Position numbers and translations under genes: made by a program. Below the pieces are notes generated by a model, which saw only the letters and a list, made by a program, of their open reading frames with translations, did not search any database and was not told the origin of the DNA. 64,000 nucleotides of DNA from Cladopsammia gracilis. Its lineage: Eukaryota > Cnidaria > Anthozoa > Scleractinia > Dendrophylliidae. The stretch covers positions 1,083,501 through 1,147,500 of the forward strand of contig JAJGOT010000195.1 of assembly GCA_022457155.1 (NCBI GenBank). Reading direction: 5' to 3'. Every line of letters begins with the position of its first letter. Within the stretch, counting starts at the first letter, position 1. Shown piece by piece: positions 380-44,013 of this stretch.

Positions 380-573
380 TATACTTAAGCGAGAAGAACA
401 TTCGTTTTACCATAGGTCCTGTTTGTGTGGTTACCATCGCTGGGCCATGTAGGAAAGGCAAGTCTTATCTATTAAGCAAAGCTTTTGACCAAGGCGAAGT
501 GTTTCCTCTTGGACATGAACTCGACCCTGAAACCATGGGGATATGGATGTGGATTGTACCAAACAAATTTAAG
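380..573 (+). CDS. GBP-like exon: P-loop and switch I
   Basis: The exon follows a TTCAG acceptor and ends at AAG|GTATTT, phase 0. It encodes the hydrophobic beta strand CVVTIAG, then GPCRKGKS (Walker A with the GBP-type arginine), then GIWMW preceded by the switch-I threonine. The start of the gene is upstream of the window. Confidence 0.85.
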
Positions 574-3500
574 GTATTTTTTTTTATGTATTTTTACCAA
601 TTTCCTGGCTTTTGTATATATTTTTGCAGTTGAATATTTCATTGCCGCTACTAACTTCATATTTTAGTTGCGCGGACTTTCATATAAAAAAAGAAAATTA
701 CTGTTTGATGTGGCACTTTTTCATTGCAGGATTCCAATGGCCAGGAATTCACAGTAGTTTTGTTGGACTCAGAAGGAATCAATGCCGTGACCAGTGGTGG
801 TTCTGATGATCACTGTATATTCACTTTGTCCATTTTACTGGCGTCAGTGTTGATCTACAACTCAGCTGGTGTGCCGACCAGGACTGATCTTGATGGGTTG
901 CAGTATCTTTTGACTGTAGAGTGAAACTCTCCTTAATCTATTGTGTTAAAAAATAAAATGAAACTCAACTGGGGAATAGACCACCTTCAGAATCAACATA
1001 CGAAACTGGGACCAAGAGGACGAACTACCAACTTTCAAATGGGAAAAGATGGGAAGGGAATTTTTCATATTTACCAGAGGGTCTTACCCAGGTACACCAG
1101 TCGAGTGACAATTTTCAGATTTTGTTAAATTGACAAATAATTTTGCTAGTACATTACTATTTAAGTGACAGTATAATAGGAAATACTATTTTCAATTATA
1201 AGTAGGCCTCGCATTTATATGCTAAAGATCACCTTAAAGGGCTACTACGATCAAATTTTTGATTTTCTTTTTTTACATTTTCGTGTACTATTAGACTTCC
1301 TTACTCATCTTGCCAAATTTCAATTCATTAGGCACATCAGAAGTCATTTAATTTTAACATTTATTTCCGAGAATTTACGGCCGCCATTAAAAAACCTTGT
1401 TCCAAGGCTTGGTTGCGAATGGGAGAAAGTGACGTAAAAGACTCAAACATACCTCACGGGTTGAAATTATAATAACAATAAGTGTTGAAAATCACGCGAA
1501 AAGCAACAAAAACTTTAGACTCGTTCTTCGTGCAATTTTCTATGCTGATTGTTATTATAATTTCAACCCGTGAGGTATGTTTGAGTCTTTTACGTCACTT
1601 TCTCCCATTCGCAACCAAGCCTTGGAACAAGGTTTTTTAATGGCGGCCGTAAATTCTCGGAAATAAATGTTAAAATTAAATGACTTCTGATGTGCCCAAT
1701 GAATTGAAATTTGGCAAGATGAGTAAGGAAGTCTAATAGTACACGAAAATGTAAAAAGAATGAAAATCAAAAATTTGATCGTAGTAGCACTTTAAAGTAG
1801 GGGATGTTGCCCGTCAGGAAAATGGTTCTATTTATCATGATGTTTCGTGATTCATGTCCCTTGCACCATTTTTATTTATTCATTCATTCGGTATCGGGTA
1901 CCCATGATTAGCCACAGATGGTTTTACCATCATGATTATAACGAGAGCGCCATTTGAGAAAAAGAAAGAAATTAAAACGTTTTTCTTAACTCAATGTTTA
2001 TAACTAACTCAATGTTTATAAGCCACATAGCAAAGTTGTCACACCTTATTCAAATACGATCGACTGATCAACCAGAAACTCCTGCCAGAGTGGACGAGGA
2101 AGACTCTGCACTTTTCTTCAAGTCGTTTCCAATATTTATTTGGTTGTTAAGGGATGTTGTTCTTTCACTTCCTGAACAGTGCTTTAATGTGAAAGAATAT
2201 TTTCTTTCAACGGTAAATACATTTTTTTAAACTAATATACCGAAGTACGTTCTTATTTCGACTTAATTATTTTTCTCGTTACGGTTTTTATACATGCAAA
2301 CATATTTTTAGTTGGATCCCTATATATTTTAACAGGGTTATTTAAAGCGGATGATTATTAAAATCTCTGTGGGCAAATCAAAACCAAAGGTACCGGTGTT
2401 CACAACTCTGAATAAAGTAGTTATAAAAATGTCTCTTCTACTACACTTCCCAAGTACTTTTTCCCTATCATTTTTCTATTTATTTCTGATATAAAAAATT
2501 TAAGAAAATCCAAAAATCAACTTTTTCTGTCATTTTCCTGAGAATCCCTGTTATCCATTCTTTAAAATAAAGGGAATTCAAGACCTAATTAATTCTTATG
2601 ATTTTTTGTATTATTGGTATTTTTTGAATTTTAGAAAAATTTTTTAAAACGGGAAATAAATATAATTTATACGACAACTCTTGTTTGTATCGTTGTTTTT
2701 CTATTTATTTAAGTAATAAAAACAAGTATTAAAAATTATTTCATAAATTTAATGTCTTTTTTAATACTTAAAATTTTTTCTGTATATTATTTAATTATTT
2801 AAGTGTTAAAATTTAATAGATATCTAAACTAAAAAAAAATTCAATATCTTAAAAAAATTATAAAACCTAATGAAATCTTGATTTGCTTTATCTTAAAGAA
2901 ATTATAAGCTCGCCCTTCGGGCTCGCGGGATTCTCAGGAAAATGACAGAAAAAGTTGATTTTTGGATTTTCTTAAAATTTTTATATCAGAAATAAATAGA
3001 AAAATGATAGGGAAAAAGTACTTGGGAAGTATAGTAGAAGAGACATTTTTATAACTACTGTATGGGTGATGGATTTTTGATGTAGTGGGAATAAAAAAAA
3101 TAATTTAAAAAAAAATTATTTAAGTTAAACTAATAACTACTTACGTCTTAAACTTTTTAATGTATTTCTTTTCAATCTTCGATGAAGTAGGTGTTAATTC
3201 TATCATTTCTTGATCTAAAAGTTTCATATCAGATATAAATTTCTGATAATCGAATTCACCACCTCTCATTGCTGTTCGTAAATTAGTCAATACTTTTTCA
3301 TAAGTTGTAAATCCAAATTTAACCATGTCTAATTTACCTTTGTAATTTTTCATTTCATGATATGTTTTTAATGTTATTCCAGCTCCAGTTAAAACACTTA
3401 AAATAATAGGGTTTAAGGTTATTCCACCTGTTATTATACCAACTGAAGCTAGTAACACAGACGAAATATTCATAATATAATTTATTTTTTTATATTTACT

Positions 3501-6500
3501 TTGGCTGTTTTTATATATCCATGTTTTTTTATGATAAAAAGAGTATAAATCCTTTAATTGTTGGATTTTCTCAAGATCTAAAGTTGAAGAAATATGATTG
3601 AATTCGAATATATCTTTTGGTTCTTTGTGTCTTAATGATTTTATTCTTGTGATTGGCATTTTATTTATAATATTTATAATAAACTTTTACTGAATACAAG
3701 AGTAAATGTAATATTGTTAACATTTACAATTTGATCAGTTCCCCTTTTATTAATCGCAATCCAAAAATGACTTGTTCGAGTTAATGGAAAATTGATATCT
3801 CTAAAATATTGATAATCATTTCCATTAATTGAAGACAAACTTTTTGTATTTCTACTATCAGATACTTTTAATGTTATATAAAAATATCGACTTGAAATAT
3901 GTAATTCAGTAAAGAAACAATCTATTGATTCCAATTTACAATTGAATGGTATATATAAAGAAGTTGATATTGAATTGAAAAATAGATGGTTATTTGATTT
4001 TGATTTATCAAAATAAGCAGTTATAAAAAAATAAGATCTTAATGATTTCAAAAAAGCTAAACTAACAGGTTGATCGTCTTTTGTTGGATTTTTAATACTA
4101 ATATCATGATTATTCATATTAATGTCTGTTTCCATCACCATTTTCTGATTTTCAAAAATAAAAGGAGAATCATAAACACTTGATTCAACATCATTAACAT
4201 AATTTTTTACACCATAAATAATCAAATAAGCTTGTGCTTGTACTAATGGTGTAGTTTTTGATGCATCACAATGTAAATCAACAAAAAAATATTCAGGTGG
4301 GGAAATTTTATATTTATGCATATGAATAATAGATCTAGTATATCCTTCTTTTTGAAAAATTTTTGTTGATTGTTGATTAATATTTAAACTTGATGAAGTA
4401 GCATTAACACTAACATTATCCATAGTAACAGGAAAAAATTCTATACATATAGTATATTCTCCTTCTGGTATTTTATACATATTAAAACTTAATCTGGAAA
4501 CATATTTTTGATCAAAATTTATATGAAGAAGTAAATCATAAGCTTTTTTGTTAAATATATGAGGACTTCTTGCTAAATCATTAATTCCAGTTACAGTAAT
4601 ATTATTTTCTGATGAACTTTCATTAACATTTTCCATTAAATATCTGAATTCATCTTTTAGATAAGATGTTGATGAGATATGAGATTCATCTACATATTCT
4701 TTAGTTGCAGCTTCTTTTTTATCTTCAGGAGATGCTAAATTAGTAATCTTTTTACCACTCATATTTAGATCAACATTTGTAGGATTACTTAATTTATGAA
4801 GATCTAATTGATGTATTTGACTATTTATTTTTACAGTTTCTTGATCTACATATTGTTTATTAGCTGCATGTTTATAATATGTAGGAATTGCTAAATTTGT
4901 AATCTTTTTATTATCCATATTTAGATCAATATTTGCAGGATTACTTAATTTAGTATCTACATATTCTTTATTTGCAACTTCATGATCATATGTAGGTAAT
5001 TTTGATAAATTAAATATTCTATGATTATCCATATTAATATCAGCACTCATTGGTGACACTTCTAATCGTGATAAGAAAATATTCTTTACATCATTATAGG
5101 AAACTAAACTGTTATAATTTTGTGTTAAATGACTAAAAGTTTGTTGTTTGCTTTGTATAATATTATAAGCTTCTTTCAAATCAATATTAGCACTTATATT
5201 TTGCGTATGAGGAATTCCACTAATTCTTCCATCAACATATGCTTTATTAGCTGCATCTTTATCACTTCTTGGAGTTGTTAAATTTATTATTCTTGTGTTT
5301 TTTGCATCATAATATCTACCTCCATTTAATGTTAAAAAAATACTTTTCCCATAAAACAAAGGAAAAGCATCATTATCACCTGCTGTTTGAACATTTGTTA
5401 TAGCATGATAATTCATATTTAGATGATCTTGCATTGGATTTTCTTCTTTACGATTTAAGAAAATATTATTTGCATCATCATAAGAAATTAAATTATTTTG
5501 ATTTGTTTGTAAATCATTATAACTTTGAGGTTTACTTTTCATAACATTGTAAAGATTTTTCATATCTATGTTTTTAATAACCTCATGAGTATGAGGAGGA
5601 GCATCGGGATGATAATTCTTCAAAGTAGCCACATTCACAGCTGATGTATCATCATTCACATCTGTATCCATATTTGTAATTATTTTTCTATTCATATTGA
5701 TTCCACCAGGAGAAATTAATTTATTTCCTCTTAAATCAAGATCACCAGTCATATGAGTTGTTCCATCTAAGTTTAAAAAGTGTGTTTTAGCAGTACCATA
5801 ATTAATAGCATCCTTTAAATTTACTGGATTAGCCACATTTACTAATTTTTTGTTTTGAATATCATAATCGCCTGAAGAAGTTAATTTAAAACCAACACCT
5901 GGTAATCCTGGTTGTACTTGAGTTGTTTTATAAATACTAGATTCTGATAATAAACCATTTGAGTAACTCATATTTTTTTATTTTAAAATTATATAATATC
6001 ATTAAAATTTTTAAATATTTCTTTCTTTGGTTTATCAATATATAAAAAAGAATAAGGATCTTTTGTAGCTAATCTATATTTCTTTTTATCAACATTATTT
6101 TCACGACATATCATAGAAATTTCATTATTACTTGGAAATTCATAAATACAAAAATGAGAACAATTTAGTCGTATATCTTTTGGTGTTTTGTAATAACTTT
6201 GTGAAAGATAAATAACACTACAATTTTTATGCCTTCCATTAATAAAATAATCAATCAGTGGTTTTTGATTTTTTTCACAAACAAAATCATCAAATATGAC
6301 TATTTTTTGGTTATCATCTGTTAATTCAGAAACTGGTAAAATTTCATCATTACTAGGTTCTATAACTTCATAACCTGCTTCTTTATTAATTGATTTTTTA
6401 AATTTTCTTAATAAATACTTATATTTTGGTTGTTCTAAATTTTTAGCATATAAATATATCTTATCATAATATAATAACCTAAGAATCATATCTAGTAAAA

Positions 6501-9500
6501 CATTTGTTTTTCCAGAACCTGAAGGACCACAAATAAGCATTCTAAAACTTTGATCTGGCATAAAATCATGTAATTGCTTAAAATTAGAAATTAAGTCATC
6601 ATCTAGATCATAGTTTGGTATTTTCATTTTATTTTAAATATAGATAATTTTAAAAAATAATACAATCATAATAATAAAAATGAGTTTATTGAAATGGAAA
6701 GAACTTGCTAAACAAAAATCTGAGTTGGGAAATAAAATCAATTTAGTTCATGATACAATAACAAATAAAAAATTAGGTGAAGAAACAAGTCAATTAGGAT
6801 ATGAAAAAATGTTCCAACCTATAACATCAAAATTAGATAATTTAAATATTGGTAATTTAGATGATTTAAATATTAGTCATTTAGCACCAACAAGAAAAAG
6901 CAAAGTATCAAAAAAGAAAAAGATTGGTAAAGAAAAAACAGATATTGATTATTATCCAGAAGTAGATCCATATGAAGAAATGGATATAGAAGGTTTAATT
7001 GATGAAGATGAAGAAATACCATTAGATTTAGGTGATGAAGTTTCCCCACAAGAAGAAAAACAATTACCATTAGATATAGATCGTCAATTATCTACTATAT
7101 TAGAAGAACAAGAAGAAATTGAAGATGATGCTGATGAAGAACCTCCACCAGAATATACACCTGGTGATTATTTGGAAGAAACACAAAGAAAAGCTTTGTA
7201 TGAAAAAGAAGTATTTAAAAAAAATGGTTTACCTATTATTGAAGAAAATATTGACAAAATACCATATGAAGAATTACTTAAAATTTGGGATGATAAAGTA
7301 CAAGAGTTAGGGAATGAGAAAAGAAAATTGACAAATTTAATAAAAAAAATGGAAAAAGATCCTGAAACTAAAGATTCTCAAGTTTTAAAAATTATCGAAA
7401 AGTAAGAAATACACAAGAAAAACATAGTAATCTTAATTATGCAAAGAAGAGATAAATTTAAAAAAACTGGTCAAGGACTTAAAACAAAAAAAGGTGGAAA
7501 TGTAACATTTTATAACGATCCACAAGAACTTCTTAAAAAACTTGAATTAATTGTAGGGTTCTATTATAGCTGGTAATACAAATATTGAAATGTATAACAT
7601 TGGAATTGCAATTTTAGACATCCTTTTGAAAACAAAAGTAATAAATAAATCTCAACATGAAAAGATTTATAAAAATTATTTTAAACAATAATATATTGTT
7701 ATTATAAAATGGATAGAGAAATAGTATTATCATCATATTCTGTTAAAACAGAAAATGGTAACAAACCTGAAAATTTCACAACAAAATTTAGTAAACCAAT
7801 TGTTTTAGACAACAACTCACAATATGTAATTGGTCTTAATCGTGTTATTAATATGAGTTTTACATGGTTTAATATAAATGCTGATTATAAAAATCAATTA
7901 ATCAAATACAGTTCTGATAATGGTAGAACATTTCATGATATTAGTTTTCCAGGTGGGGTTTGGAATTATGTTTATATTAATGCATTTATTAAACACATAA
8001 CTGTTATAAAAGAATCTGGAAAAGAAGATGTATATCCAATTAGTCTTATTTTTGATGAAACAACTTTTAGAGTAACAATAAGATTGAAAGAAAATTATCA
8101 ACTGGATTTTACACAAAGTAATTTTTATGAATTACTAGGATTTGATAAGAAAATTTTAAAAGATAAAATAAATGTAGGTCCTAGAGTTCCAAATTTAAGT
8201 CAAGATACAGATATTTTAAATATACATTGTGATTTAATTAATGATTCACTTGTAGATGGTCAAGATAGTGATATTATTTATAGTTTTTCTACTTCTGTTT
8301 TAAGACCATCATTTAGTTTTACTCTTGAACCAAAAAGAATTACTTATAATCCAGTAAATAAAATTATTATTCAACTGCACTCAGTAGAGTACAAATAACA
8401 CCCAAAACGAGTACAAATATCTCACGGTATTTGTACTCTAGAAGACCGGTTTCACCGGTTTTTCACAAACGTCACTTCGAGCATTAGTCTTACGTAAGCG
8501 GTGAAAAAATGGCTCAAATTGTTCCCAAACTAGAACGGACAAAACTGAGAAAAACTACTGAGAAAAACTGACGGGATCTATTGACGTTTTTACCCAAACA
8601 AATCCAAACAATTATGCGTTTAATCACACAAAGTCTTTCTTCGCTGTACAAAAAGTACACGCGATCAAACAACTACACGACTGACAATTCGTCATCATTT
8701 TTTTTTTAATAAAGCGCGCGCGCGCTGACAAACAAGTTCAAATAGCGCGCGCACGACAACCTTGAAAAAGTAAGAAAGATTAAAACGGTGTTTATGACTA
8801 AGTTGAATAATAAATATCTTATTGGACGGTTTAGTGTGTAGTATCGTGGGATATTTTTACTCATCTCTTGTATTTTGACTCGCCCTACGGGCTCGCCAAA
8901 ATACAGCGAGACTCGTAAAAATATCCCACGATACTACACACTAAACCGTCCAATAAGATATATATACTATTAATAGTATAAGAATTTACATTACAGATGG
9001 AAAAAGAAGATTAATTGACCTCAATGGGGCAGATACATCTTTTTCATTATTGTTGAAAAAAATAATATAAATCTAATAATAAAAAAATGAAATCTTACGA
9101 ATTTTCTCGTTTTTATAATCCAAAATTGGGTAAATTTATGTATAAACATAAAGGTAATGGTATGGTTGTTGATAATATTTTAAAACCAATGAGAAGTGTT
9201 ATGTCAACTGTTTTCAAAAAATTTGTTAAACCTGTAGCTAAAAAAGCATTAGAAGCAGGGATTTCTCATACTGGAGAAAGAATAGGTAAAAAGATTTCTG
9301 AAAAATCTGGTGATTTAATAATGAAAAAATTAGGAAACATGAGAATAAACACTCCTAAAAAAACAAGACAAACAATACCAAAAACACTCCTAAAACAAGA
9401 AGAAAATACTGACATGATATTAAATAGATTAATAACTGGTAATGGAATAAAAAAATAAAAAAAATTATATAATCTTATAAAATAAAATATGGCTTTCAGA

Positions 9501-12500
9501 TCAAGTGAATATTTACAAAGAAATGAAATGATAAGATTTCAATTAGATGATGTGATTAGAATTCCAGCTAATACTCAACATCAAGTTAAAACTGGTTATA
9601 AATTCACAATTAATGATAGATCAGCATTTTACGATTGGTATAACGCATATTTTGAAGTAGATTTTGAACTCCAAAAATTAGCAGATGGTGCTGGTTATGC
9701 TGCAGCTGATAGAATTACAGTTTTAAATGGTTCACATAGTTTAATTAATCATATCATGCTTAAATCTGCAGGTAAAATAATTTATGATACTAATAATTTA
9801 CATAAAGTTACTTTTGTTAAAAATTTGTTAGAATATTCTGATGATTATAGCAGATCAGTAGCTAAAAACAGTTTCTGGTATTTAGATACTAATGCTACAA
9901 CAGCTGATACTAATTCAGGGTTTGAAGCGAGACGAATACAGACACAAGCAGTTAATAATGATGGTACTGGAGGTCTTAAAACCATTAATACTATTATACC
10001 ATTAAATAGATACTCTTTCTTTGAAGAACTTGAAGATAAGATGCTTGTACCTATGCAATTACAATTCAACATTGAACTTCAAAATGATGATGAATTAATT
10101 CATAAAGCTAATGCTGCTGCTGCTGGAAGAGTTGTTGTTACAAAATTTTTACTTTGGGTACCAAAATTAACACCTAAAGATTCTTTATATGATAAATTTG
10201 TTACTTCATTCATGAAAGAAACAAAATGGAAATATTTAAGGGAAATGTATGAATCATCAGCTCCTACACGATCATCAGGATTTTTTCAAATATCAAGCAG
10301 TATTGATAATATTAAGCATATTTTTGTTTACTTGAAAAGAACAAATCCACCTAATAATAATCAAGCTGAAGATAATCCTTATCTTATGAATACTTACAAA
10401 TTGAATGCAGCTGATGCTAATTCTCACTTACAAAACTGTAGATTGGAATATGGAAATGGAGTATTTTATCCAGAAACAGAATATGATAGTGAAGGTAAAG
10501 TAAGAATATTCAATGATGTAATGTCATATGCAATGAGGAAAAATGATTATAATACAGGAACACAACTTAATTTAGCTAATTATAATTCTCTATATGGTTT
10601 GATATATTTTGATCTTACATATCAAGCAGAAAAAATTACTAGAGATCCTAAACAATTAATATTCAGATATACTTTAAGCAGAAATGCAACTGCTGATTTT
10701 AATGTTCATGCTATAGTTTTATATGAAGAAATGGTGAAAATTGATAAAATTGGAAATGAATTAGTAATTGTATAAAATTAAAATTATAAAAATTATATAA
10801 TCTAATAATAAAATTAAAATGACAACTTATCATCCATACAAAATAAATTTATCTGATAATCAAAAAAAGAAACTTGCAAAAGCATATAAAACAAACACAC
10901 CTTTAACATTTAGATTAAAAAATAATCAAACAAGTGGTAATGATGAATTACTATTAACAACTAATCAAATTAACAAAATTAAAAAGGCTAAATCATTAGG
11001 AAAAGGAACAGACATCAAGATATCAAAAACACAAATTAGAAAAGTAATGAGACAGGGAGGAAGTTTATTTAGTAGTATTATTCCATTAGCTCGTACTTTT
11101 GCACCAACTATAGCTAAAACACTTGGATTATCAGCTCTTGCTGGTTTAGCAAGTGAAGGAGCAAGTCAAATTGTTAAAAAGATAAGTGGTAATGGTCAAA
11201 TAGGTGGGTTTTTTAATACCACAAGATAAAATAAAAAAACTCATTGAAAATAAAAATCTACTTACAAATAAACAAAAACAAGACATATTAAACGCTATTC
11301 AATCTGGAGGTAAATTAGTGATAAAACCAACTAAAAAACAATCTGGTGGATTATTAGGTACATTACTAGCTAGTATTGGTATACCTCTTGCTATTGAGGC
11401 TTTTAAAAAAATTACTGGAAAAGGAGCACCAAGAGTAGGTAGACCAAAAGGAAAAGGAGCACCAAGAATAGGAAAAGGAGCACCAAGAATAGGAATGTAT
11501 GAGCCTCCTCCACCTTTTATAGGACAATGGGGAAAAAATACTATTGGTATGGGAAAAAAAAAGTCAAAAAAAAACTACGAAAAAAGGAAAAGGTCTTTTA
11601 TTAGGGAAGGACAGTCCATTCAACAGCATTCCAATTCTCGGAACAATATTATAAAACCAAAATTCATAAACAAACCATTAAGTAATATTGATTTAATGAA
11701 ATGGATAAAATACTTAAAAATTCCAAATTTCAAAGGTATATTTTCAAGAGATGAAAAAATGTCTATTAATCATAGTCCATGTATAATAAATCTTGATTCA
11801 TATGAAAACGTTGGAACTCATTGGGTTTGTTGTGTGAAAAGTCATGATAATAAATTTATATGGTATTTTGATAGTTTTGGAATGGGTTATCCTGAAGAAT
11901 TTAAAAAAAGTAATGATAAACCAATAATTTACAACTCAAATCAATATCAAAATATTAAAAGTGTTCTTTGTGGTTATTATTGTCTTTATTTTCTTCATCA
12001 ATGGTCAATGAAAAAAGATTTTTATGATATACTAAAACCATTCAGTTTAAGTGATACTATGTTTAATGAAAGATTTATTAAAAAATACTTTGAATAAATC
12101 TTTTTTATAACAATGATTGTTATAAAAAATCAAATATATATATTTCCCTTTATCAATCCTTTTAATATTCCAAGTTTTTTCTTTATTTTCAAAACTAAAG
12201 TAATTATCTTTAATAATCTTTTATCTTCATTAAAATTAGTATAAACAATATGATCAAATATGCATTCTATCATTTCATTTAAGTTTTTTATTTCATTCTC
12301 TATAAATACAGATCTACTACTTTCTTCCATTTTTTATTTTATATTTATATAATCTTAATAATAAAATGAAATCTTATTGTGTGAAAGAAAAAAAACAAAC
12401 TGATTGTGTAGAACCTAGTGGATATAAAACAACAAAAAATGGAAGATTAATGTTTTTCTGTAAATGTGCTTCTTGTGGAATAAAAAAAACACGTTTTGTT

Positions 12501-15500
12501 AAGAAACAGGGAAACTAATTCAGCCTTCTTCTTCACAAACATCACCTCTCAATATATTAGAAGGAGAAGGCTTTGGTGAATTAGCATTAACAGGTTTAAC
12601 TCATGCTTTACCTTGGTTAGGTAAAAAAACAGTTGAAATGGGACGATATGGAGCAAGTGAATTAATGAGAAATAAAAACATGCAAAAAAAAGCATTAGAT
12701 TATACTTTAGACTACGCAAAACCATTTTTACAAAAAACAACTTCAGATATGATGGATCAACTAAGTACTAAAATAAGACCAAAATTAAGATATAAAACAA
12801 ATAGAAAAGATTTAGACTTTCAAGGAGGTAGTGTAGATATTCATAGCCTCATTGGAAAATTGCCAAAACCAAAAGGTGGTTGGACTCCTGGAGAATACAA
12901 GTATATGGGACCGTATAACCCTTTGAATGAACAATTAAGATATGATCCTGAAACAGGTGAAGTATTAGAATGGATGGTTAAACCATATAATAAAGTAGAT
13001 GAAATTGCTGCTTATCATGATATATGTTATGATATGGGAAAAAATAAGAATGAATGTGATAGGCAAATGGTTAAATCTTTAGATCAGATTCCATACGGTG
13101 AAATACCGAAATGGGGACAAACAGCGAGATTTATTATAAATGCTAAACAAAATCTTGGTTTGGGTTTACCAAAGAAAACAAAGAATACAAAATCAAAAAA
13201 CGTAAAACGGCGTTGAGTAATAGTGATTGGACTCAACAATTAGCCGATGAATTACATAAACCAATCACTAGAAACTTTTTAAAGAGAACTGTAATATCAA
13301 ATGGGATTGATGAAATCTGGGCTGCAGATTTGGTTGAAATGCAAAAGTTTAGTAAATGGAATAAAGGAATAAATTATTTACTGATGGTAATAGATATTTT
13401 TAGTAAATATGGATGGATTGAACCATTGAAAAACAAAAAGACTGAAAGTGTTAGTAAAGCATTTGATGATATATTTAAAAAAAGTAAACGTAAACCAAAA
13501 ATGCTTTGGACTGATAAAGGTTCTGAATTTATCAGTAAACATTTCAAGGACCTTCTTGAAAAGAATAAAATCAAATTATATCATACAGAGAATGAAGAGA
13601 AATCAAGCATTGTTGAGAGATGGAATAAAACAATGAAAAACAGAATGTTTAAGATGTTTAGTGTAAATAACAATACTGTTTATTGGAACATCCTTGATAA
13701 ATTAGTTAATGATTATAATAAAACAAGACATTCTAGTATTAAAATGACTCCAATTCAAGCTAGTAAAAAAGAAAATGAAGAAAAAGTTTATGCTAATTTA
13801 TATTCAGATTTAATTTATTTGAAACCTGGAAAAATAAAATTTAAGGTTGGAGATTTCGTTCGTATATCAAAATATAAGAGACCTGTATTTGATAAAGGAT
13901 ATACTCCAAACTGGACAGAGGAAATATTTGTGGTTAATGAAATATTAAACACAAAACCTATAACATATAAAATTGTTGATTTAATGGGAGAAGAAGTAAA
14001 AGGATCTTTTTATGAAAAAGAGTTACAAAAAACAAAACAAGAAATATATAGAATTGAGAAAGTATTGAAACGAGACACCAAGAAAAAGTTAGCTTTAGTT
14101 AAATGGAGTGGATATCCTGTCAAGTTTAATTCGTGGATTCCTTTGAGTGATTTAAAAGATTTTTAATACTATTGTAGTATTAAAAAATTGTTTCAAGCGA
14201 CATAAAAAAAAGCCCTTAAAAGGGCAAATACTTTTTTTCCAGTCTAAAACAAATCCTGTGAATTACTTTCTTCCTCGACTTCATCTTCGTCATCACTTTC
14301 TTCATTAATCATTAATAATGATTCTCTTGGTTTCAATGGTCTAACATAAACTTCATGAACTTTAACTTGAATACATTTTACTAATTTGGAAATATAAATA
14401 CTCTCAATTATCAAAGCTAATTTCACTTTACAATATTGATTAAGATATTCAAATGGATCAACACTCTTTTGACCTTTAGTTTTAAATAAAGATAGAATTT
14501 TATTAGATTTTTCTGAATATATAAGTTTTGCATATAAAACTGGTGAAACACTTTTATCAATTTCTGTTTTAGTTCTTCCTTTTTTATCAGTGTATTCTTT
14601 CTTTTTATAATATAAAATTTGAGATAAATTTTGAGATTCTTCAACACCAATTGTATCTTCAAGATGGTTATAACAAAGTTGTTGAATATTTTCTAATGTT
14701 TTAAAAAAAGTTTTTTCTTCTTTTGTTGGATCTTTTTCTTTTTCCCATAAACAAACAGGAATTGTATATCCAACTAATTCTTGCGATTCTTGATTCTTTC
14801 TTTCAGATACACCAAAACTAAAAAGTAAAGGTGTTTCAATTATAAGAGGACCTTGCTTACCATTAGGATAAGATGTTTCGATTTTAATACGATGATATTT
14901 CATCTTAGAATTCTTGACTTTATATTGTTTGGCTTCGTTAAAAATTAGATTTTCTTTAGAAATGTTTTCGGGAGATGTAAGTTGCATTTTATTATATATA
15001 AATATTTTTTTTAAATTATTTTTTTTTTAAAAATTATAAATTTCAGCATAAAAAAAAGCCCTTAAAGGGCTAAATTTTTTTTTAATCAGAATCAGAATCA
15101 GAATCATGCCAAATTACATTAAGAGGTTCTTTTACTTCTACAAAATATTCTTCAAAATCTTCAAGTATATTTCTTATTTGTATAAATATTTTTTCATGAT
15201 CTTTTTCTAAAGAGAAATATTTAATATTTTTTTTCTGGAACTTCAAAATATAATACATTTCTATATCTTTTTTGTCTTAACATAATACTTCTAATAATAT
15301 CATAAGATAAATATTTAGAGTCTAAAAATTCAGATAACTTGCTATGATTAAGAATTCTAAAATGACGTTTATATATTAATGAATAAAAAGTATCTTCAAA
15401 ATCATCTGATACTTCAAAATCATCTGGTACTTCAAAATCATCAATAAACTTATATAAAACTTTTCTTTTATATTCTTCTTTCATTAAATATTTTCTCATA

Positions 15501-18500
15501 TATTTTATTTCTTTTCTTATTCTATTTAATAATTTCTTCTCTATTTCATTATTTCTTTTACTTTCCTTATATATTTTTTTTATTTCTTTCAATTTTAAAC
15601 TGTTATCTGATATAATTATATCTTCAACTTCCTTCTTTCTTAACTCATAAAATCTTTGATAATTTATAAATATATTGTGAAAATGAAGATCAATCATATA
15701 CATTTTACCATATAATATTTTATCAGCATATCTTATGCCAAAAAGATTTATGGAATTGCTTTGTATTGCGTATTATTAGATTTGCTTTGCGAAGAATTCA
15801 TTTTTTATTTTATATAAATATTTTTTTTAAATTATAATTTTTTTTTTTTTGCTACAACTTAATTTCTTTTTTAACTAATTCCCACCATTCTTCATAAAAA
15901 GCTTTTGTTGCTTCTGAAAGTTTTAGTGGTAATATTTCATCAACATTACTATAACCTAGAATAATTAAAATCTTTTTTATAATGAAAGTAATATTAATGA
16001 TTCTCTTTCTTTCAAATTGTGTATTTAATTTCGTAATTAAATTTGCATTATCAATTTTATAAAGTATTTCATTAATCTTAGAAATATCATTTTTATGTCA
16101 AAAGTTTTTTGTATTTCATTGATCTTTTTCTTAAAAAAATACTTTCTTTGATATACTGATTTTTTTCTATAACAACATCTTTCCCAATCAAATACACCAA
16201 CTTCATAATTTAATATTCTTTGAATTTCAAGTCCACAATCACAACAAACTTCAGCATAATCAATAATTTCTTTATTCTCATGTTTACATTTTTCATATAT
16301 TGGAATATTTCTTTTTTTCTTTTTTTTGATTTTACTTTTGTCATAAGATTTTAATATGGAAGAATATAATTTAATCTCTTCTTCTGTATACATATTTAAT
16401 CTTTTATTTTTTTAAATTTTTCAAAATTTTTAAATTTTTCAAATTTTCTCTTTCATAAAATCTTTCTCTCTTATACCTTTTATATCTAAGTTCTTCATCA
16501 AAATCTTCTATTAAAAAAAATCTTCTTATATATATAAATAAAATATCTTTTTTTGTGAAATCAATCATTTTATTTTATATTATTTTTTTTTTATTTTTTT
16601 CAGGTCTCAAAGCTAAAGTATTAATTTTATTTTCACAAATCAGTCTTTTATCATCATTTGCTGATAATGCTACCTTATTCATTTTCATTGAATAAATTTC
16701 ATGATTTTTACTTCTAATTATATTCATTTGTCTCATTTCTTCTTTTTCTGAGAATAAACATGTTTTGTAGTCTTCAAATGTTATTTCCTTTTTAATAACA
16801 TTTTTTTTAATTCCTTTACATTTCTTAATTTCTTCATCATCAACCTTAAAAGAATAAAGCTTAGGTCTTAGACCAACAAAATGCGTTATTTGACTACCAC
16901 AAACTTCATCTTTAAACATTCCTATTACTTTCTTATTAACTCCTGTTTTTATACCAGATACATGTTTTTCTGGATAATCACTTGTATCAAACTTCTTTTT
17001 TATGTCTTTCTTTATATCATCATAAAAATCATCTGTATGAATTTCATACATTAATGAATCTGTATCTGTAAAAAGTAACTCAGCTTTATTAGAATATTTT
17101 TTTCTTATATAATTATAGTGAAAATCATACATATGTAATTTAGATAAATCAAGAATAGCTTGACCAACATAAATAGGTTTATTAAAATATATTTCTGTCT
17201 TTTTCATATGAACTGCTATTAAATTCTGATCAAATATTGTTAAACGATCAAAATTAGGTTTTGATACTAATTTTTTAGCAATTTTTTTATTATTTACTAT
17301 TTTAATATTTTGTCTTTTTCTTATATTTTCTATTGTTTTTCCAAATACAGAATTATTCATTAATTTAAAAAAGTCTTTTTCAAAGGAATTTTTAGATTGT
17401 TTTCTTAATTCTGTATTCTTTTCTATATAAGGTTTCATCCAAGTAGATTGATAAAATGTTATTCCTCTATGTACTTTTGCTAGTGTAAGTCCTAAATCTA
17501 AACATTGTTTAAGATTTCTATAATGAATTATATAATTCTTTTTAGTATAAAAATTACCAACAAGTTTCTCAACTGAATCAAACTTTAATCTTTCTACAGC
17601 AAGTGGATAATCATTATGATCTTTCCATAATTCCTTTGGATATTTAAGATCCACTTCAAATATATAACCATGATTTGTAATTTTCTTTTCTAATATTTTT
17701 AATACACTTTGTACTGTAAGATCTTTCATCCATTTAAAACCATGAGTTGGAAGTCTTTGAAACATTGCATAACCATAAAGATTATTAGCATCAAGATATG
17801 AAATAAATTTTGATTCTTTCTTTGGATTATAATTTTTCATATATTTATTGTTTGCTTTTGAATATCTTTTTGATATATGTGTAATTCCACCTCTAATTCC
17901 TTCATCAAACATCATTAACATATCATAATCATGTAATAATTCAAGACTTTGATTTGTTTCTTTAAGACAAGCATCCCAAGCTAATCCAGGAGATGTATAA
18001 TAATGAGCTGGATCTAAATTATAATGTTTCAAGCATGTTTTTCTAAAGTTTTCAAAAACATCAGCTAAAAGTAATACATCAGTCTTAAGATATAAATCAT
18101 GATAATCTTTAATGGTTTTACAATTAAATTGTGTCCAAATCTTTTGTGCATGGTGGTAGTCATCTTCTGAAATATCTTCATTGTATAAATGTGAATAAAA
18201 GTCTTCTTTTGGTGGTAATTTAGTTTCTTTAAATTTTTCTAGAGAATTTACATAATCATAAGGATATACCCCTTTTCTTAGTAATAAATCTATATTATTT
18301 TTATAATATTTTTTTACAGAATAAAAATCATCAGGTTGTAAATTTTTAACGAGGTTTCCTAAAGAAGTTAATAAAAATTTAAATGAATCAATAAAACGTA
18401 TTTCAAAAGTAAATATTTTTATTTTTTCTCCATCATTTTTTTCACCAACTTTAATTTTCTTAGAAAATGATATATATTTCTCTTCTGTTTTAGGAATAAA

Positions 18501-21500
18501 AGTTAATTCTTCACCTTCTATTTTCGCTAATTCTTTAATAAAAAGATGTGAATCATAACCTTGAAGATTATGAAATATTACAGGAATTATTTTAGGTTTT
18601 CTACAATTAATATTACAAATATTATGAGCAGCTCCTCTATATTTCCCAGTAAAATGACAATGATCTCTAACTTTACTATATTTTTTATCATCTCTATTGA
18701 GTGAAATAAAAGGTTTTTCACAAATATGACAAATTTTTGAATTATTAAACTCTTTTTTATCAGAATCCGTAAATATCATCATTCTTGAGAAAGTATAAAA
18801 ACTAAAATTAATTTGTTCTACTATTTTTTTTAGTTTTTCTACAAAAATTATTGCAATATTTTCATCTTCTTTTTCCTTTGTATAAATAATAGGATTAGTT
18901 TCAAATATTCTATCCACTCTTTCATCAAAATCAAAAGATTTAATATAAATACAAAATCCACAAGGTTCGTGTTTTTGATATTCCATTGTATAAGAAAAAT
19001 TTGGATCCGGTTCACAATTATTCATTGGTTTTGTAAAACATTCAAAATCAGCATAAATAACAAAAGGAAAAGGTATTTTATAATTAAAATTTTTAAAAAA
19101 TGTAAATGAGTTTTTAGGAGGCATTTTTATTGCGGCTGTGGTATTATTACTACAAAATATAATGTGTTTCTTTAAAAGATCCTCTTTTGTAAAATGAGAC
19201 AAACATTTTTTACAATAATATTTTTTTAAAGTATTTTCAGAAACTTGTTTACTTACTAATCTTGAAAAATTTTTAATAAAAGTATAATGTGATTTTCCAT
19301 TGTCTTCATAAAGAAATAAATCTATTGAATTATTACAATCTTTATCATTCATTCTTAAAGGATAAAATTTATTATTATCATTAATTGAAAAAACATTTAT
19401 TCCTGGAAGACTTGGATTTAGATTTTCGAACTTTTTTATATCTGTTAATTTTACTGGAAATTTAATACCTTTAAATTTAAGATCATTTTCATATTTTTTT
19501 AAATCTGATATTCTTTGAGGTTGACCAATTTTAGATGGATGTAAATACCTTAAAATACACCACATGAAACATTTATTATCTTTTTTATTTTCTAAATTTA
19601 CTATAGCTTGCTTTTTTGAAATAAAATCAGGAAGTTTAATATATGAAGAACCTTTCATAGGTTTATATCTTACAATATGAATTTCTAATGATAAAACCTC
19701 TCTAAAATACCAACCTGAACCATTTTTTAGATAAGTTGAAATTTTATTAAGAATTTTTTGAAATATTTTAATTAAAATCTCTTTAATACGGGAACCTTCA
19801 AGATTAATATGTATTCCAGAATGAAAATAAGCTTTATCTGTAATAAATTTAGTTATTTTTTCATCAAACTCCACTTTTTCCATTAAACAAACTAATATAA
19901 AACTAAATTTAATATTTCTATAATTTTTAAGAAATTCTTTTAATTGTGAAATTTTTTCTATAAAATAATCTTTAGGAAATATATTTGGAACCCCTTCAAT
20001 AACATATTTTTCAGCAAAATTACTAAGAGCAGATTTTTCAAATTTAATTCCAACTTGGTATTCTTTCATTGCTCTTTCAAGTGCTTTCTTTAAATATTTT
20101 GGTGTATCTTCTGGAATTTTTCTATTTTTTATACATTCTTTAAAATAATCATCAAATGTTTTTTTATTTGATTTAATTGTCTTTTTTTTGTATCTAAGTT
20201 TTAGTACTTTATTTTTCTTTGATTCATATTCTTTTGCTTTCTTTAATTTTTTTATTTTTCTTTTAAGAGATTTTACTTTCTTTTTAGGTTTTGTTTTCTT
20301 TATTAGTTTTGTTTTAGCTTTTTTAATATTTTTTCTTTGTTTTTCTATTCCCATAATTTCATTAATCAGTTTTTGTTTCTCTTGATTTTTATAATCTGAA
20401 TATTCTGTTTTTAATTTAGTTTGTTTATCTTTTTTTATATTCTTTAATTCTTCAATTGAAAGATTAGTTAAATCTTTTAAAGACATTCTTTTTTATTATA
20501 TGATTATATTTTTTTTAAATCCAAAATTTTTTTTTTCTCTACACAAAAAATTATAAATTTCAGCATAAAAAAAACCCCAAAAATGGGGCTAATAAGATAA
20601 TTCACTTTTAAAATAATCAAATACTTCTTCTGCATCAATACAATAATTTCCATAATCTTCATCATAGTCTTTTTCTGGTCTTTCTCCTATAATATTAATT
20701 TTTATTTTTTCTTGAAATTTATATAAAATTTTCTTTACACTTTTTATCTCTTTACAATTTGATAAATATCTATTTGTTAAAAAACAGGCAATATTACCTG
20801 AACAATAAAAAAGATCATGAAAAACTAAAGTATCTATTTCATCATCATCTCTATCATAAAAAGATCTATCAAAATCTAAAATCAAATCTGGAAGTTTATT
20901 CAACTCTGTATTATTTTTTTAAAATTTTTTCTTAATTCTTCTCTAAAAAAATCCCAATCTTGACCAAGTATAAGTTTTCTTAATATTTTAAAGACTTTTA
21001 AAAAAACTTTATCTATATTTTCATATTTTTCTTGTAAATTTAATATTGATTCTGGATTTTTCTTTATGATTTGGTTTGTATCTGGCTTTGCGTTCATTAT
21101 TTTATTATATATAAATATTTTTTTTTAAATTATTTTTTTTATTCCCACTACATCAAAAATCCATCACCCATACAGTAGTTATAAAAATGTCTCTTCTACT
21201 ATACTTCCCAAGTACTTTTTCCCTATCATTTTTCTATTTATTTCTGATATAAAAATTTTAAGAAAATCCAAAAATCAACTTTTTCTGTCATTTTCCTGAG
21301 AATCCCGCGAGCCCGAAGGGCGAGCTTATAATTTCTTTAAGATAAAGCAAATCAAGATTTCATTAGGTTTTATAATTTTTTTAAGATATTGAATTTTTTT
21401 TAGTTTAGATATCTATTAAATTTTAAGACTTAAATAATTAAATAATATACAGAAAAAATTTTAAGTATTAAAAAAGACATTAAATTTATGAAATAATTTT

Positions 21501-23232
21501 TAATACTTGTTTTTATTACTTAAATAAATAGAAAAACAACGATACAAACAAGAGTTGCCGTATAAATTATATTTATTTCCCGTTTTAAAAAATTTTTCTA
21601 AAATTCAAAAAATACCAATAATACAAAAAATCATAAGAATTAATTAGGTCTTGAATTCCCTTTATTTTAAAGAATGGATAACAGGGATTCTCAGGAAAAT
21701 GACAGAAAAAGTTGATTTTTGGATTTTCTTAAATTTTTTATATCAGAAATAAATAGAAAAATGATAGGGAAAAAGTACTTGGGAAGTGTAGTAGAAGAGA
21801 CATTTTTATAACTACTGAATAAAATATCTTTGATCACATAACCCAAATTTTGTGAAAATTCCATTGTTTCAAAATCACACCAATTACTCATAGACGCGAT
21901 CAACATCTCGTTACGTATTTTATAGATTCGGGAAATCGTTGCAATGGTTGCTAATGTTTTTATGGATGTCAATCATGTAAGCTTACGTTTATTTTGCTTC
22001 ATGTGTCCATGGTATTTCAGTATCATGTTTTAAATTGTGATTTTTAGGAACTGTGCTGAAAAATTACGAATAACTTAGACCCAGATCTTACTCACTGACT
22101 TGTTAAGAATACCAGGTCAAACAGGCAATGACCAAAATGCTCTGTACATCACTTTTAACAGTTAGTGTTCGCCGTTACCGAAACAGATTAATTTCTCTTT
22201 CATAATCTTCCTTTCTGTAGTGTTTAAAGGGCCTCCAACTATAAGGGTCTCCCTTGTAACTGAGAACTGAATATTGAAAACAAAACTCACTGATAAGTAT
22301 TTCTACTTCATGCTTCAATACATTATAACCTTAGGTTTTTAAACACACCTCAGAAGCAAAAAGCAATGAATCAGATGACATAGCAAAGAGTATCCTGAAG
22401 TATTTCCCGGAGTTTCATGCGTTTAAACTGCGTCCACCATCGTCCGATCCAGATGTTGTATCAAACCTCAACGAAAAAGAGTTCAGTGAGGTTAACAAGT
22501 TGTTTGTTTGGGGAATCGATGGCTTCAAGCGAGTGCTAATGTGCAAGCTTTCTCCGAAGCGCAGTTTCAATGAAGCTGAGTATGTTACTGGGGAAGGTGA
22601 GCTCAATCTCTTCTCAGTCATATTTAACAGTATGCGTGACCCACGTTGAAAAATGTTGCAAAGCCGGTGTAAATTTGCCGATACTTACATCCTCTTCCTT
22701 AGTATAAACCGAATACGAAAAGTGTAAAGAAATCATTTTTTATCTGTCCATCACGTTTTACCTTCCATTAGTATTTAAGTTTATTTTAATTTTACTTATT
22801 TTGTTACAAATTGTTATATCGTTAAAGTTTATTGTGGAATACCCGGCTGAAAACTAGCTTTGAAGCTAAGTGTATTTCCACTTTACCCAGCCCCAAAGTG
22901 GAGTTTTCAGACTTTTAAATTGTAACTAGGAGTACAATTGTTAAAGAGTATATTTTCTAAATTTTGTTAACCTAAATTAAGATTTTGTAAATCCCAGTCC
23001 CAATAGACCTATTTCATAATGGCGGCCGATTTATTTATTCTTTTATATGTATGTTAATTAGCCTCACTGGCCTCATTTTAAAGTAAAAATTCCTTTGAAT
23101 TTTGCACATGTTACCGAGGCCAGTGAGGCTAATTAACGTACATATAAAAGGATAAATAAATCGGCAGCCATTATGAAATAGGTCTATAAGATGATTTTAA
23201 TTTGTAATTATTATAAATAAGCATTATTATTA

Positions 23233-23279
<47 letters not shown>

Positions 23280-26200
23280 TATTATGTATGTATGTATGTA
23301 TGTATGTATTGGGATAGCATTTGTTGTGTAAAACCTTATTCCAAGAAAGTCGAGAAAATCGTTTCACTTATATGGCATTCCAACTCGCCAAGAAATTTAT
23401 CTCTAATGCAACTTTTTATAAACTTTTACTGCGTTAATTAGCCAAAATTAATTAGTTGAATGAGAAGTGTTTTGCTTAATACCCGTCTATTTGTCATTTT
23501 CCTCATTAGGACTTGCCGAATTGGTGACCACATACGTAGCTCAGCTGAATAATCCCGGAACAGTTGTAAATGTTGAAAAAACTTGGGACAACTTTGTCTC
23601 CACAAAATGTACCACCGTGAAAGCAGCTGTATTAGGAACGTATGACGACGCAATGAAGTTACAGATGGAGGGCAAAATGCCGTGCGAAAGTGATGTTATT
23701 CATTTGGCCCACCAGACAGCGTTTGATGAAGCCTTGAACCTGTTTCAAGAAGAGACGTTCGGCATTTCTACAGCAAATGTGGAAAAATATCTAAAGGAAA
23801 TAACGGTAATTGTATCATTCAACGATAGTAAAATGAATTTCGGATTATAAGTAGTAAGTTATAGCGATCTTAAAAGAGAAAACTAGTTGCTAGAAAGTGG
23901 TATAGCCAAGAAGATTTGAAATAAATTGGTTAAATTCGGAACCGGCAGTTAGTTATTGATATTTCAACAAATGAAATCAAAACTACGTTTTCAGCTGCTT
24001 GGTTAACACGAGTTGTGGGGGCAGTACGCAGCTTTTACAAGGTCTTCTCTGATTTGCTGAGAAAACAATAGAACAAACAACACAACGATGCCTAACAATA
24101 GACCCTAGACCTAAAAACAATAGAGCTGCATGATATACAGGTCCAATGAAATTAGAGGTTGTAAAGAGCTGCGTGGTATCTGGAGTTGTGTATGTTTATA
24201 TCAAGCAAAAAATCGCCAAATACTCGTGGAGTTTTAAGTTAGACAATATCCTGATTATCCGATTGCTATCATGTCACTTAGTCACCCATATGCAGTCTCT
24301 CTTACTAGTACTACGACCTTCCTTACGAAAATTGAGAGACAAGCAGAAACCTCATTCCCAAGACCTCTTCAGTATAAAGACCATGGCAAAAAAAGAGGTG
24401 ATGTGACATTTTTTGAAGGGTAAGCAGGGCCGCAGGTTGCATGAGGCGAACCGAGGCACTTACCTAGGCAAAAATAAAATTTTGAATAAAGGTACAAGCA
24501 TTGGATTTCTATTGTAAGAGGCTATGCATAAAAAGAATGAAAGAAGTGTTATTTAAATTGTAACCTGGGAAAACGCTATGGTTTCTATCGACTGACTATT
24601 TCGAAGAAAAATTAAAATGTACAGATAGTTTATTTCCTCAACAGGATTATACGGAATGTAGTTTAAAACGCTGGCAACAGGAAAACAGCAACATTACTAA
24701 GGAGAACTGCCACAAGCTGCTGATTGAATTGAAACAACAACACCTCGACCCAATTTTAACTCGTTTGAGAGGACGAGATGCGGTTCAAGTTTCTTTTTCA
24801 GAAATCAAGGAAGGTTATGCTGCCATCGAGAGGGACTTCTTGTCTGGAGCCAAAGGAGCTGCAGATGCTTGTGCTCTGATGTACTCCGATATTTCAAAGC
24901 GTGAGCAATTTTTGATACCAATGTTTTTCTAAGGATGTTTAATACCTTGATTTTAGTACCTGTAGCCTTAAACAGCATATATATTCTGAATAGTCCGTGT
25001 TTTTCTTTAAACGCTGTTACGTACTTTGAAATTTATTGTTACACTAGTTAGTCTTTTTAAGGTGGCTCCTAATAGTTTAACCCTATTCAGCCTGGGCTTT
25101 TTTTTGAGTTTCTGAGCCTGGGGGGAGGGGGGGCACATTGTGCCCCCCCCCCCCCGTCGTAACTTCAAGAACATTAAGGCTATGACAATGAAACCTAGAT
25201 GGTACATAGCACGTCCAAAACTGTCACCTTTGCGGTCCGCATAATGGAACGATGACGTCATATGACGTAGTTATTAGGTAATTAGTTATGCGGCCGCCAT
25301 CTTGGATCCGCCATCTTGGATTTCTGAATTTTTTCAGAACCTCTTAAAAACCGTCCAAATTCACCCAAAATTAATAAAAACCAATAAATAAACGCTAAAT
25401 GACGTAAAAATATAAAAGTTACACCAATAAACATTGTTTTTCTTCATTCAAAGGTATAAATATGCAAATTTCAAAAAACATGGCTGTCAAAATCTTGTTG
25501 CCATGGAAACATTAAGTCACGTGATCAAAAAATTGTCATATGAAATTGTTGCCAGATAAATTTTAGGAAAAGTCACAAAGTTTGATGGCGTTTGCATACA
25601 TATTAAGGAAGTTATGAATGTTGAAAGTTAGCGCGGGCACTTTGTGCCCCCCCCCCCTCCCCCCCTCCCACAGGCCGAATAGGGTTAAACATTCCCATCA
25701 TGATACATCTATGATATTCAATCACAGCTACACCAGTAAAGTTAAGAGAAAACGTTTAGTACAGGTTTGTAAACACTTAACCAGTTAACAAATTTAGGTG
25801 GCTACGACATCAAAATTTGTTACCATGGCAACGTCAAAAGAGGCCAAAAAGACCCCATTTTCAACCTTTTGAGGCTAATAACTTCAAAACCGCTCGGTGA
25901 AATTTTTTGATTTTTATATATTTTCGTCTTATAAACATAACAAACATTTGCGTCAATTTTGAAAAAAAAATCTGTACATAGGATTCAGAGATATGTCATT
26001 TTAACATAAAGTTAAGGTAGCTCTGAGCTCTATGTACAGAATTTTTAAAAACAGTTTCTCTTGCCGATTAAACAAAAATATATCGAAAACAAAAACTTTC
26101 ACCGTGTAGTTTATGTTATTAGCCTCAAATGGTCCAAAATAGCGTAATTTTTTTACCTATTTTTGCGTTGCCATGGCAACGAAAGTTAACGTCATTTGGA

Positions 26201-35733: not shown

Positions 35734-36461
35734 TTAAGGTTACAGTGTACCTTCAGATAAAAAATTTATCGAAAATTTTTTTTGGCGTCAAAATAAAGTT
35801 TACAGAATGAACTTTCATTCAAAAAAAAAAATTATCGAAAAATAGTGAAAATTGACGGAGAAATGACGGTATAACTTTTGTGGGCGGAGTTTGTTTATGA
35901 AGCGATATGTTTTTTTAAGCGCTGTTTTCTCAAAGTTAATTTTTCGCTTGTTTGGGACACTTTAAAGAGCTACAACTCAAAGGAAATTTGTTCGATTTTC
36001 CTCAAATTTGGACAGAAGCTAGGCTAACATATAATCAACAAAAACGTGTCGGCGATTTTCTTAATTCCGAAAACTTTTTCGTCAAGAGCCATTTCCGTGA
36101 GATCATTCCAATTTTTTTTCTCCCTTTTTCGAAAATATTATGTAACTTTTCACGTGAATTGAATATAGGAAATCGCCGACACGTTTTTTTAGCGCTTCGT
36201 GTCCGGAAATCCGAGAACAAATCAAATTAGCAAAATACAATAATCGATTTGAGTTATAGCGTTTTAAAGCTGATTCGGACGTTCGAATTCAGACGTCGTA
36301 AAAAATTCGACAATTCATTTTATTACCAAATGGTTTCCATATTTAGATAGCCAGCTGTATAAGCTTTAATTTGATATCTGGGTTTAGGTATATTAAGTTT
36401 AATCTTAAGACGCTAGAGCTGTTATACTGGAGACACCCCCGAAGGTACACTGTAACCTTAA
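35734..36461. mobile_element. TTAA element inside the LINE
   Basis: TTAAGGTTACAGTGTACCTT at the left and its complement at the right. The LINE frame continues on both sides of the TTAA, so this insertion is younger than the LINE. No transposase. Confidence 0.85.
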
Positions 36462-43840: not shown

Positions 43841-43885
43841 TTCAGATGAGACTGCAAAGAAAATATAAGTCTTATGCGCTTTTCT

Positions 43886-43886
43886 C

Positions 43887-43922
<36 letters not shown>

Positions 43923-44013
43923 TTCAAACAATCTTTATTAACAATTAAAATAACTATTTACAATACATTTAAATTCTAATTACGATAAAATATATAATAA
44001 TATAATAATAATG

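What the first reader, a model, noticed from the sequence alone, without database searches (positions are those of the whole stretch)
2410..21822. Complete 19.4-kb Polinton inserted inside an innate-immune-type GTPase gene
Exact ends, a 6-bp duplication GAATAA and full Polinton gene content sit between G-domain exons of a GBP-like gene. An endogenous virus-like element in a putative antiviral GTPase could alter splicing or dosage, or create a hybrid transcript.
Basis: partly seen in the sequence, partly recalled or inferred. Interest (0 to 1): 0.75.

Follow-up and report, generated by a model that had tools for sequence, protein, structure and literature searches.

The report
Virus-like transposon in coral GBP intron
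A young 19.4-kb virus-like DNA transposon (a Polinton, also called Maverick) sits inside an intron of an immune-type GTPase gene, most likely of a coral or sea anemone; the gene's coding parts around it stay readable, and inside the transposon is a possible pair of ribosomal frameshift signals leading into its integrase.

Summary
A 19,401-bp element (2416-21816) with about 700-bp inverted repeats (2 mismatches, 1 indel) and AGTAGT//ACTACT ends is flanked by GAATAA twice. It lies in one intron of a guanylate-binding-protein (GBP) gene, most likely of a hexacoral. The exons stay open, and 8 of 9 aligned homologues run straight across the junction. Effects on splicing or dosage, and an empty site, could not be tested.

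'Complete' needs correcting: a minor structural gene at 11.0-11.65 kb lies in three frames here, while two relatives carry it in one. The DUF5679, PLA2-like and integrase frames also follow one another by -1 steps.

Two further points. (1) A phage-like fibre gene belongs to a family with conserved anchor and middle parts and a hypervariable head. (2) Both -1 steps carry a canonical slippery heptamer; they rank 1st and 3rd of 87 in-frame heptamers for downstream RNA stability. A tandem frameshift making a PLA2-integrase fusion is possible, but it rests on one copy and was not tested in relatives.

Overall: a new member of a known kind.

The parts
2410..2415 (.). target-site duplication, left copy GAATAA
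21817..21822 (.). target-site duplication, right copy GAATAA
2416..3116 (+). left terminal inverted repeat, about 700 bp; its outer 134 bp recur inverted at 2927-3060
21117..21816 (-). right terminal inverted repeat (end approximate)
3141..3659 (-). 172-aa ORF, no curated family above its cut-off
3674..5971 (-). 765-aa phage-like fibre protein: PF03906 segment, stalk repeats, beta domain at about 441-600, head at about 645-767
5989..6627 (-). A32-type packaging ATPase (PF04665, 4.5e-17)
6680..7405 (+). 241-aa ORF, no family found
7709..8398 (+). 229-aa ORF; minor capsid protein by position only (inference), no family found
9087..9458 (+). 123-aa ORF, no family found
9489..10775 (+). 428-aa major capsid protein, double jelly roll by fold search of a low-confidence model
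10819..11651 (+). minor structural gene, falling in three successive frames here (pieces 11008-11199, 11207-11554, 11613-11651); one frame in two relatives
11495..12097 (+). adenain-like protease, weak matches (PF00770 0.051 to the longer frame; 1avp 0.16) plus motifs read by eye
12366..12518 (+). 50-aa zinc-ribbon-like ORF (DUF5679, PF18930, 5.4e-8)
12509..12583 (+). candidate -1 frameshift signal 1: G GGA AAC heptamer (12509-12515) and a two-part stem-loop (12516-12583)
12503..13216 (+). PLA2-like frame (PF08398, 4.3e-7); first ATG at 12638
13195..13270 (+). candidate -1 frameshift signal 2: A AAA AAC heptamer (13195-13201), 6-nt spacer, pseudoknot (stem 1 13208-13218 with 13231-13237 and 13243-13246; stem 2 13221-13230 with 13261-13270)
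13147..14166 (+). integrase frame: rve (4.3e-12) and chromodomain (1.3e-6); first ATG (13339) lies inside the rve match
14244..14987 (-). DUF2738 protein (PF10927, 2e-31 on the longer frame)
16575..20486 (-). 1,303-aa PolB-like protein; polymerase motifs read by eye, weak Endonuclease_7 match inside
380..2212 (+). GBP exons left of the element (380-573, 730-902, 2023-2212): P-loop, G3 and RD motifs
22335..28322 (+). GBP exons right of the element (22335-22596, 23510-23805, 24645-~24899, 26354-26476, 26927-26974, 28080-28322)

Best explanation
A Polinton of the adintovirus-like kind integrated recently into an intron of a GBP gene of a hexacoral. Shown: the ends, the 6-bp duplication, near-identical inverted repeats, much of the expected gene set, and open GBP exons on both sides. 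Inferred: insertion was by the element's own rve integrase; GBP transcripts splice out the 20-kb intron, so effects on the host gene are mild or nil; the element descends from a capsid-forming virus with an attachment fibre. This copy is probably not fully working, because a structural gene is out of frame, unless that is an assembly error.
For: Ends, duplication and inverted repeats. Gene content. Integrase with C-terminal chromodomain, named as an adintovirus trait in PMC11071296 (passages). GBP exons join in one frame with PF02263 and PF02841; 8 of 9 homologues are continuous across the junction. Named GBP homologues are corals and anemones except one tick.
Against: No profile or PDB match for the PolB-like frame and only weak ones for the protease. 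One structural gene out of frame. The first GBP exon(s) are not in the window. One GBP exon (to about 24899) has no canonical GT donor in phase. No other copy or empty site could be examined.
Confidence: 0.9

Rival explanations
1. The element changes GBP expression (early polyadenylation, exon trapping or a hybrid transcript).
For: A 20-kb AT-rich intron with 66 AATAAA hexamers on the GBP strand within the element.
Against: No coding damage. The hexamer count is of the order expected in 24% GC DNA: the other strand has 62. No transcript data.
Confidence: 0.2
2. The -1 steps between the DUF5679, PLA2 and integrase frames are decay or assembly errors and not programmed frameshifting.
For: A neighbouring gene is out of frame where two relatives are continuous. 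The steps lie in G/A runs, where length errors are common (recalled). Single copy only. The nested fold at signal 2 is unremarkable (z -1.83; 10 of 200 shuffles fold as well). 639 of 127,800 window positions and 9 of 1,629 heptamers on both strands reach signal 2's pseudoknot score.
Against: Both sites are X XXA AAC heptamers in the 0 frame and rank 1st and 3rd of 87 for downstream stability. Signal 1 has z -3.52. 4 of 80,000 shuffles reach signal 2's pseudoknot score.
Confidence: 0.65
3. The Polinton-GBP junctions are an assembly chimera.
For: None found; no reads are available.
Against: Exact duplication next to matching ends, and GBP exons on both sides joining in one frame.
Confidence: 0.02

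Closest known systems
Polinton/Maverick elements (vertebrate Mavericks, PMC8097293; passages seen)
   Same: 6-bp duplication, (AGT)2//(ACT)2 ends, inverted repeats, integrase, ATPase, capsid gene
   Different: Carries a phage-like fibre gene (the terms fiber and fibre-like phospholipase gave 0 occurrences of 'fiber' in that paper's text); one structural gene out of frame; integrase frame without an ATG upstream of the rve domain
Adintoviruses, including a coral one from Stylophora (PMC11071296 and PMC11071308; passages seen)
   Same: rve integrase with chromodomain; a polinton has been described from a coral
   Different: The N-terminal OTU-like domain of PolB was not tested; predicted -1 sites there concern Penton and Hexon-Adenain, not PLA2-integrase
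Fibres of polinton-like viruses of protists (PMC12220804; passages seen)
   Same: bacteriophage-like modular fibres inferred to attach to host cells
   Different: Here in an animal-integrated Polinton family; other domains (PF03906 stalk, variable C-terminal head)
Retroviral gag-pro-pol double -1 frameshift (recalled, no call)
   Same: X XXA AAC heptamers with a downstream stem or pseudoknot, two in series, leading to integrase
   Different: A DNA element with a PLA2-like upstream partner; unproven

Membership tests
Polinton/Maverick | 6-bp target-site duplication | tested here: met
   GAATAA twice
Polinton/Maverick | long terminal inverted repeats with (AGT)2//(ACT)2 ends (PMC8097293, passages) | tested here: met
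Polinton/Maverick | rve integrase | tested here: met
   PF00665 4.3e-12; foamy virus and other integrases in PDB
Polinton/Maverick | A32-like packaging ATPase | tested here: met
   PF04665 4.5e-17
Polinton/Maverick | double-jelly-roll major capsid protein | tested here: met
   Foldseek ranks 1-46 are chains of double-jelly-roll virus capsids; but model pLDDT is 47 and TM-scores are only about 0.2-0.27
[quoted passage not shown]
   1,303-aa frame with motifs read by eye; no polymerase match in Pfam, NCBIfam or PDB
Polinton/Maverick | adenain-like protease | tested here: inconclusive
   PF00770 E 0.051, below cut-off; 1avp E 0.16
Polinton/Maverick | all genes intact (needed only for a working copy) | tested here: not met
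   minor structural gene in three frames
Adintovirus | integrase with C-terminal chromodomain | tested here: met
   PF00385 1.3e-6, residues 301-338 of 339
Adintovirus | PolB with N-terminal OTU-like domain | tested here: inconclusive
   no Pfam match to the N-terminal part
Guanylate-binding proteins | GBP N- and C-terminal domains | tested here: met
   PF02263 1.1e-40, PF02841 3.4e-8
Guanylate-binding proteins | P-loop GxxxxGKS and the further G motifs | tested here: met
   GPCRKGKS, LDSEG and LLRD found in the joined frame
Guanylate-binding proteins | C-terminal CaaX-like box (only some members; recalled) | tested here: not met
   frame ends about 25 residues short; 7 of 9 aligned homologues end in C-x-x-x
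Programmed -1 frameshift signal | slippery X XXY YYZ heptamer in the 0 frame before the upstream stop | tested here: met
   12509-12515 and 13195-13201
Programmed -1 frameshift signal | stable structure a few bases downstream | tested here: inconclusive
   signal 1 z -3.52 but its outer stem starts with no spacer; signal 2 pseudoknot reached by 4 of 80,000 shuffles, nested fold z -1.83
Programmed -1 frameshift signal | conservation in relatives and a fusion product | not testable with these tools
   no related DNA reached; own genome not answered

The most novel reading that the evidence does not exclude
This Polinton makes its integrase by two successive -1 ribosomal frameshifts, from a zinc-ribbon (DUF5679) ORF into a PLA2-like protein and from that into the integrase. 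A small share of integrase is thus built as a fusion to a virion-type protein and carried into the capsid, as retroviruses do with Gag-Pol. That would explain how a capsid-forming DNA transposon delivers its integrase to a new cell.
Probability: 0.33. Interest if true: 0.65.

Novelty: new member of a known kind. Interest (0 to 1): 0.4.

Why it matters
As an insertion it is an ordinary event, though it offers a young, testable allele of an immune-type gene in a hexacoral. The fibre family (3075 homologues found), with conserved anchor and variable head, would fit entry from outside the cell and change of host range in animal Polintons, whose particles have not been observed according to the abstract of PMC8097293 (seen in the listing). 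If the tandem frameshift is real, it gives a simple bench test of how such an element packages its integrase.

Tried and rejected
Related DNA for conservation tests: six scans of viral contigs with the capsid protein, PolB, fibre, capsid alignment, an integrase pattern and the integrase frame and two of genome contigs with the capsid alignment and the integrase frame confirmed no relative. Phage records gave nothing for PolB and two partial matches at 28% identity for the integrase in unannotated records.

The own-genome search was asked ten times in the same form, as the tool advised, and never answered. Copy number, other copies and an empty site are therefore untested. No homologue search was left for the integrase or PLA2 proteins: the three allowed went to fibre, capsid and GBP.

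Rfam: nothing at gathering threshold in 2300-22000. tRNA genes: none in the window.

Considered and rejected: coding disruption of GBP. Programmed frameshifting at 11.2 kb, because two relatives are continuous there; caveat, both are 607-609-aa proteins in which capsid sequence runs into this protein, so they are themselves unusual. Integrase starting at ATG 13339: unlikely, because it lies inside the rve match.

Literature: 'Polinton' with 'ribosomal frameshift' gave 2 papers; a search with Maverick, programmed frameshift, integrase and capsid (any three of four terms, 10 of 87 listed) showed no paper holding both Maverick and programmed frameshift among those listed. PMC11071296 predicts -1 sites in adintovirus Penton and Hexon-Adenain (passages). 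I saw none for PLA2-integrase; these searches do not prove absence.

Full report
What is there. The window holds a 19,401-bp element at 2416-21816 between two copies of GAATAA (2410-2415, 21817-21822). Its ends read AGTAGT and ACTACT, and its terminal inverted repeats run for about 700 bp with two mismatches and one 1-nt indel. It is 24.4% GC against 34-36% outside. A six-base match by chance has probability about 0.0004 to 0.0006. The duplication and ends agree with those given for vertebrate Mavericks in PMC8097293 (passages). Each inverted repeat is itself bounded by an inverted pair: the outer 134 bp recur inverted at 2927-3060 with two mismatches, and likewise at the right end.

Genes of the element. 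Clear by profile: A32-type ATPase and PLA2-like domain, rve integrase with chromodomain and DUF2738 (integrases in PDB), DUF5679. The 428-aa protein at 9489-10775 has 1876 homologues among 5402 candidates. Its model is of low confidence (pLDDT 47), and TM-scores are only about 0.2-0.27, but Foldseek ranks 1-46 are chains of double-jelly-roll virus capsids (iridovirus, Sputnik, PBCV-1, PRD1, Faustovirus, mavirus and others). The PolB-like frame (1,303 aa) is open, but no search recognised it as a polymerase; I name it from motifs read by eye. The protease rests on matches below cut-off and motifs read by eye.

Not fully intact. Relatives P0235 and P0240 carry the minor structural protein in one frame. 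In the window, P0235 aligns in three successive frames (11008-11199, 11207-11554, 11613-11651) and P0240 in two. So this copy has a broken structural gene, or the assembly errs there.

The host gene. Exons 380-573, 730-902 and 2023-2212, then 22335-22596 and five more, join into one open frame matching PF02263 (1.1e-40) and PF02841 (3.4e-8). The homologue search gave 102 proteins among 7,997 scored candidates; the named ones are corals and anemones except one tick, the best named being Porites lobata at 60%. The host is therefore most likely a hexacoral; the species is unknown. In the alignment of the window's protein with 9 homologues, 8 run on across the junction where the element sits; the ninth, P0255, lacks the 18 residues just before it. 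The intron is 20,122 bp now and would be 715 bp without the element and one duplication copy. The insertion is thus intronic, inside the G domain, with coding left open. Whether it alters splicing or dosage cannot be said from sequence. GBPs were detected in the Nematostella response to poly(I:C) (PMC8476169, passages), which makes an immune role plausible but says nothing about this copy.

The fibre gene. The 765-aa protein at 3674-5971 has a T7-tail-type segment (PF03906 2.3e-9) and tail-fibre PHROG matches. The search scored 7,998 candidates, found 3075 and listed 120. I aligned 29 of those 120 with the query. Mean identity to the window's protein is 55% in residues 30-190 (29 of 29 rows), 36% in the stalk (20 of 29 rows with enough letters), 56% in residues 441-605 (29 of 29) and 17% in the head (24 of 29). 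Of 121 proteins (the query and the 120 listed), 10 were dropped for lack of the motif or a short head. The 111 heads fall into groups of 74 and 33 and four singletons, one being the window's own. A conserved anchor with a variable head is what a receptor-binding fibre would show; this is inference. Phage-like fibres are described in protist polinton-like viruses (PMC12220804, passages).

The two -1 junctions. The DUF5679 ORF (12366-12518), the PLA2 frame (12503-13216) and the integrase frame (13147-14166) follow by -1 steps. The integrase frame has no ATG before 13339, and that ATG lies inside the rve match. At the first overlap sits G GGA AAC in the 0 frame (12509-12515), followed by a two-part stem-loop (z -3.52; 1 of 200 shuffles as stable). 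At the second sits A AAA AAC in the 0 frame (13195-13201), a 6-nt spacer and a possible H-type pseudoknot. Its stacking score was reached by 0 of 1,500 and 4 of 80,000 dinucleotide shuffles. Among 87 0-frame heptamers in 18 element frames, the two rank 1st and 3rd for downstream stability. Three of the 87 have 60 or more open -1 codons: these two and a weaker one at 13162 in the same PLA2-integrase overlap.

Against the frameshift reading: 639 of 127,800 window positions and 9 of 1,629 heptamers on both strands reach the second site's score. 5% of all 5,162 codon positions fold as well as the second site, and its nested fold alone is only z -1.83. The outer stem of the first site starts directly at the heptamer. 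The PLA2 protein could start at its own ATG 12638. A neighbouring gene is out of frame. No related DNA could be reached. The sites were noticed by reading this copy, so the tests are after the fact. I give programmed tandem frameshifting 0.33.

Verdict. The finding is real. Its core is an ordinary kind of event, a young adintovirus-like Polinton in an intron of a hexacoral GBP gene; polintons of corals are already known (Stylophora, PMC11071308, passages). The regulatory reading remains untested. The fibre family and the possible frameshift pair deserve follow-up.

Noticed in passing
window 12509-12583 and 13195-13270: Two X XXA AAC slippery heptamers with downstream RNA structure at the -1 overlaps DUF5679-to-PLA2 and PLA2-to-integrase.
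   Followed up: partly
window 3674-5971: Phage-like fibre protein; family with conserved anchor and middle part and a hypervariable head.
   Followed up: partly
window 2416-3060 and 21173-21816: Each terminal repeat is bounded by its own inverted pair of about 134 bp, so the terminal sequence occurs four times in the element.
   Followed up: partly
window 8810-8965: Palindrome inside the element: 58-nt arms, 93% complementary, 40-nt spacer, between the ORFs ending at 8398 and starting at 9087; no other copy in the window.
   Followed up: partly
window 28080-28322: The GBP frame ends about 25 residues before the C-x-x-x end seen in 7 of 9 aligned homologues; unrelated to the insertion.
   Followed up: no
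window 24890-24902: One GBP exon has no canonical GT donor in the phase that the next exon needs; an extra exon or unusual splice is possible.
   Followed up: no
window 1241-1790: Inverted repeat in the GBP intron between 902 and 2023, 92% identical arms.
   Followed up: no
window 36409-38238: Reverse-transcriptase (RVT_1) frame interrupted by one in-frame stop: a decayed retroelement.
   Followed up: no
window 31087-32055 and 42770-43957: Two rhodopsin-type GPCR frames on the minus strand (PF00001).
   Followed up: no
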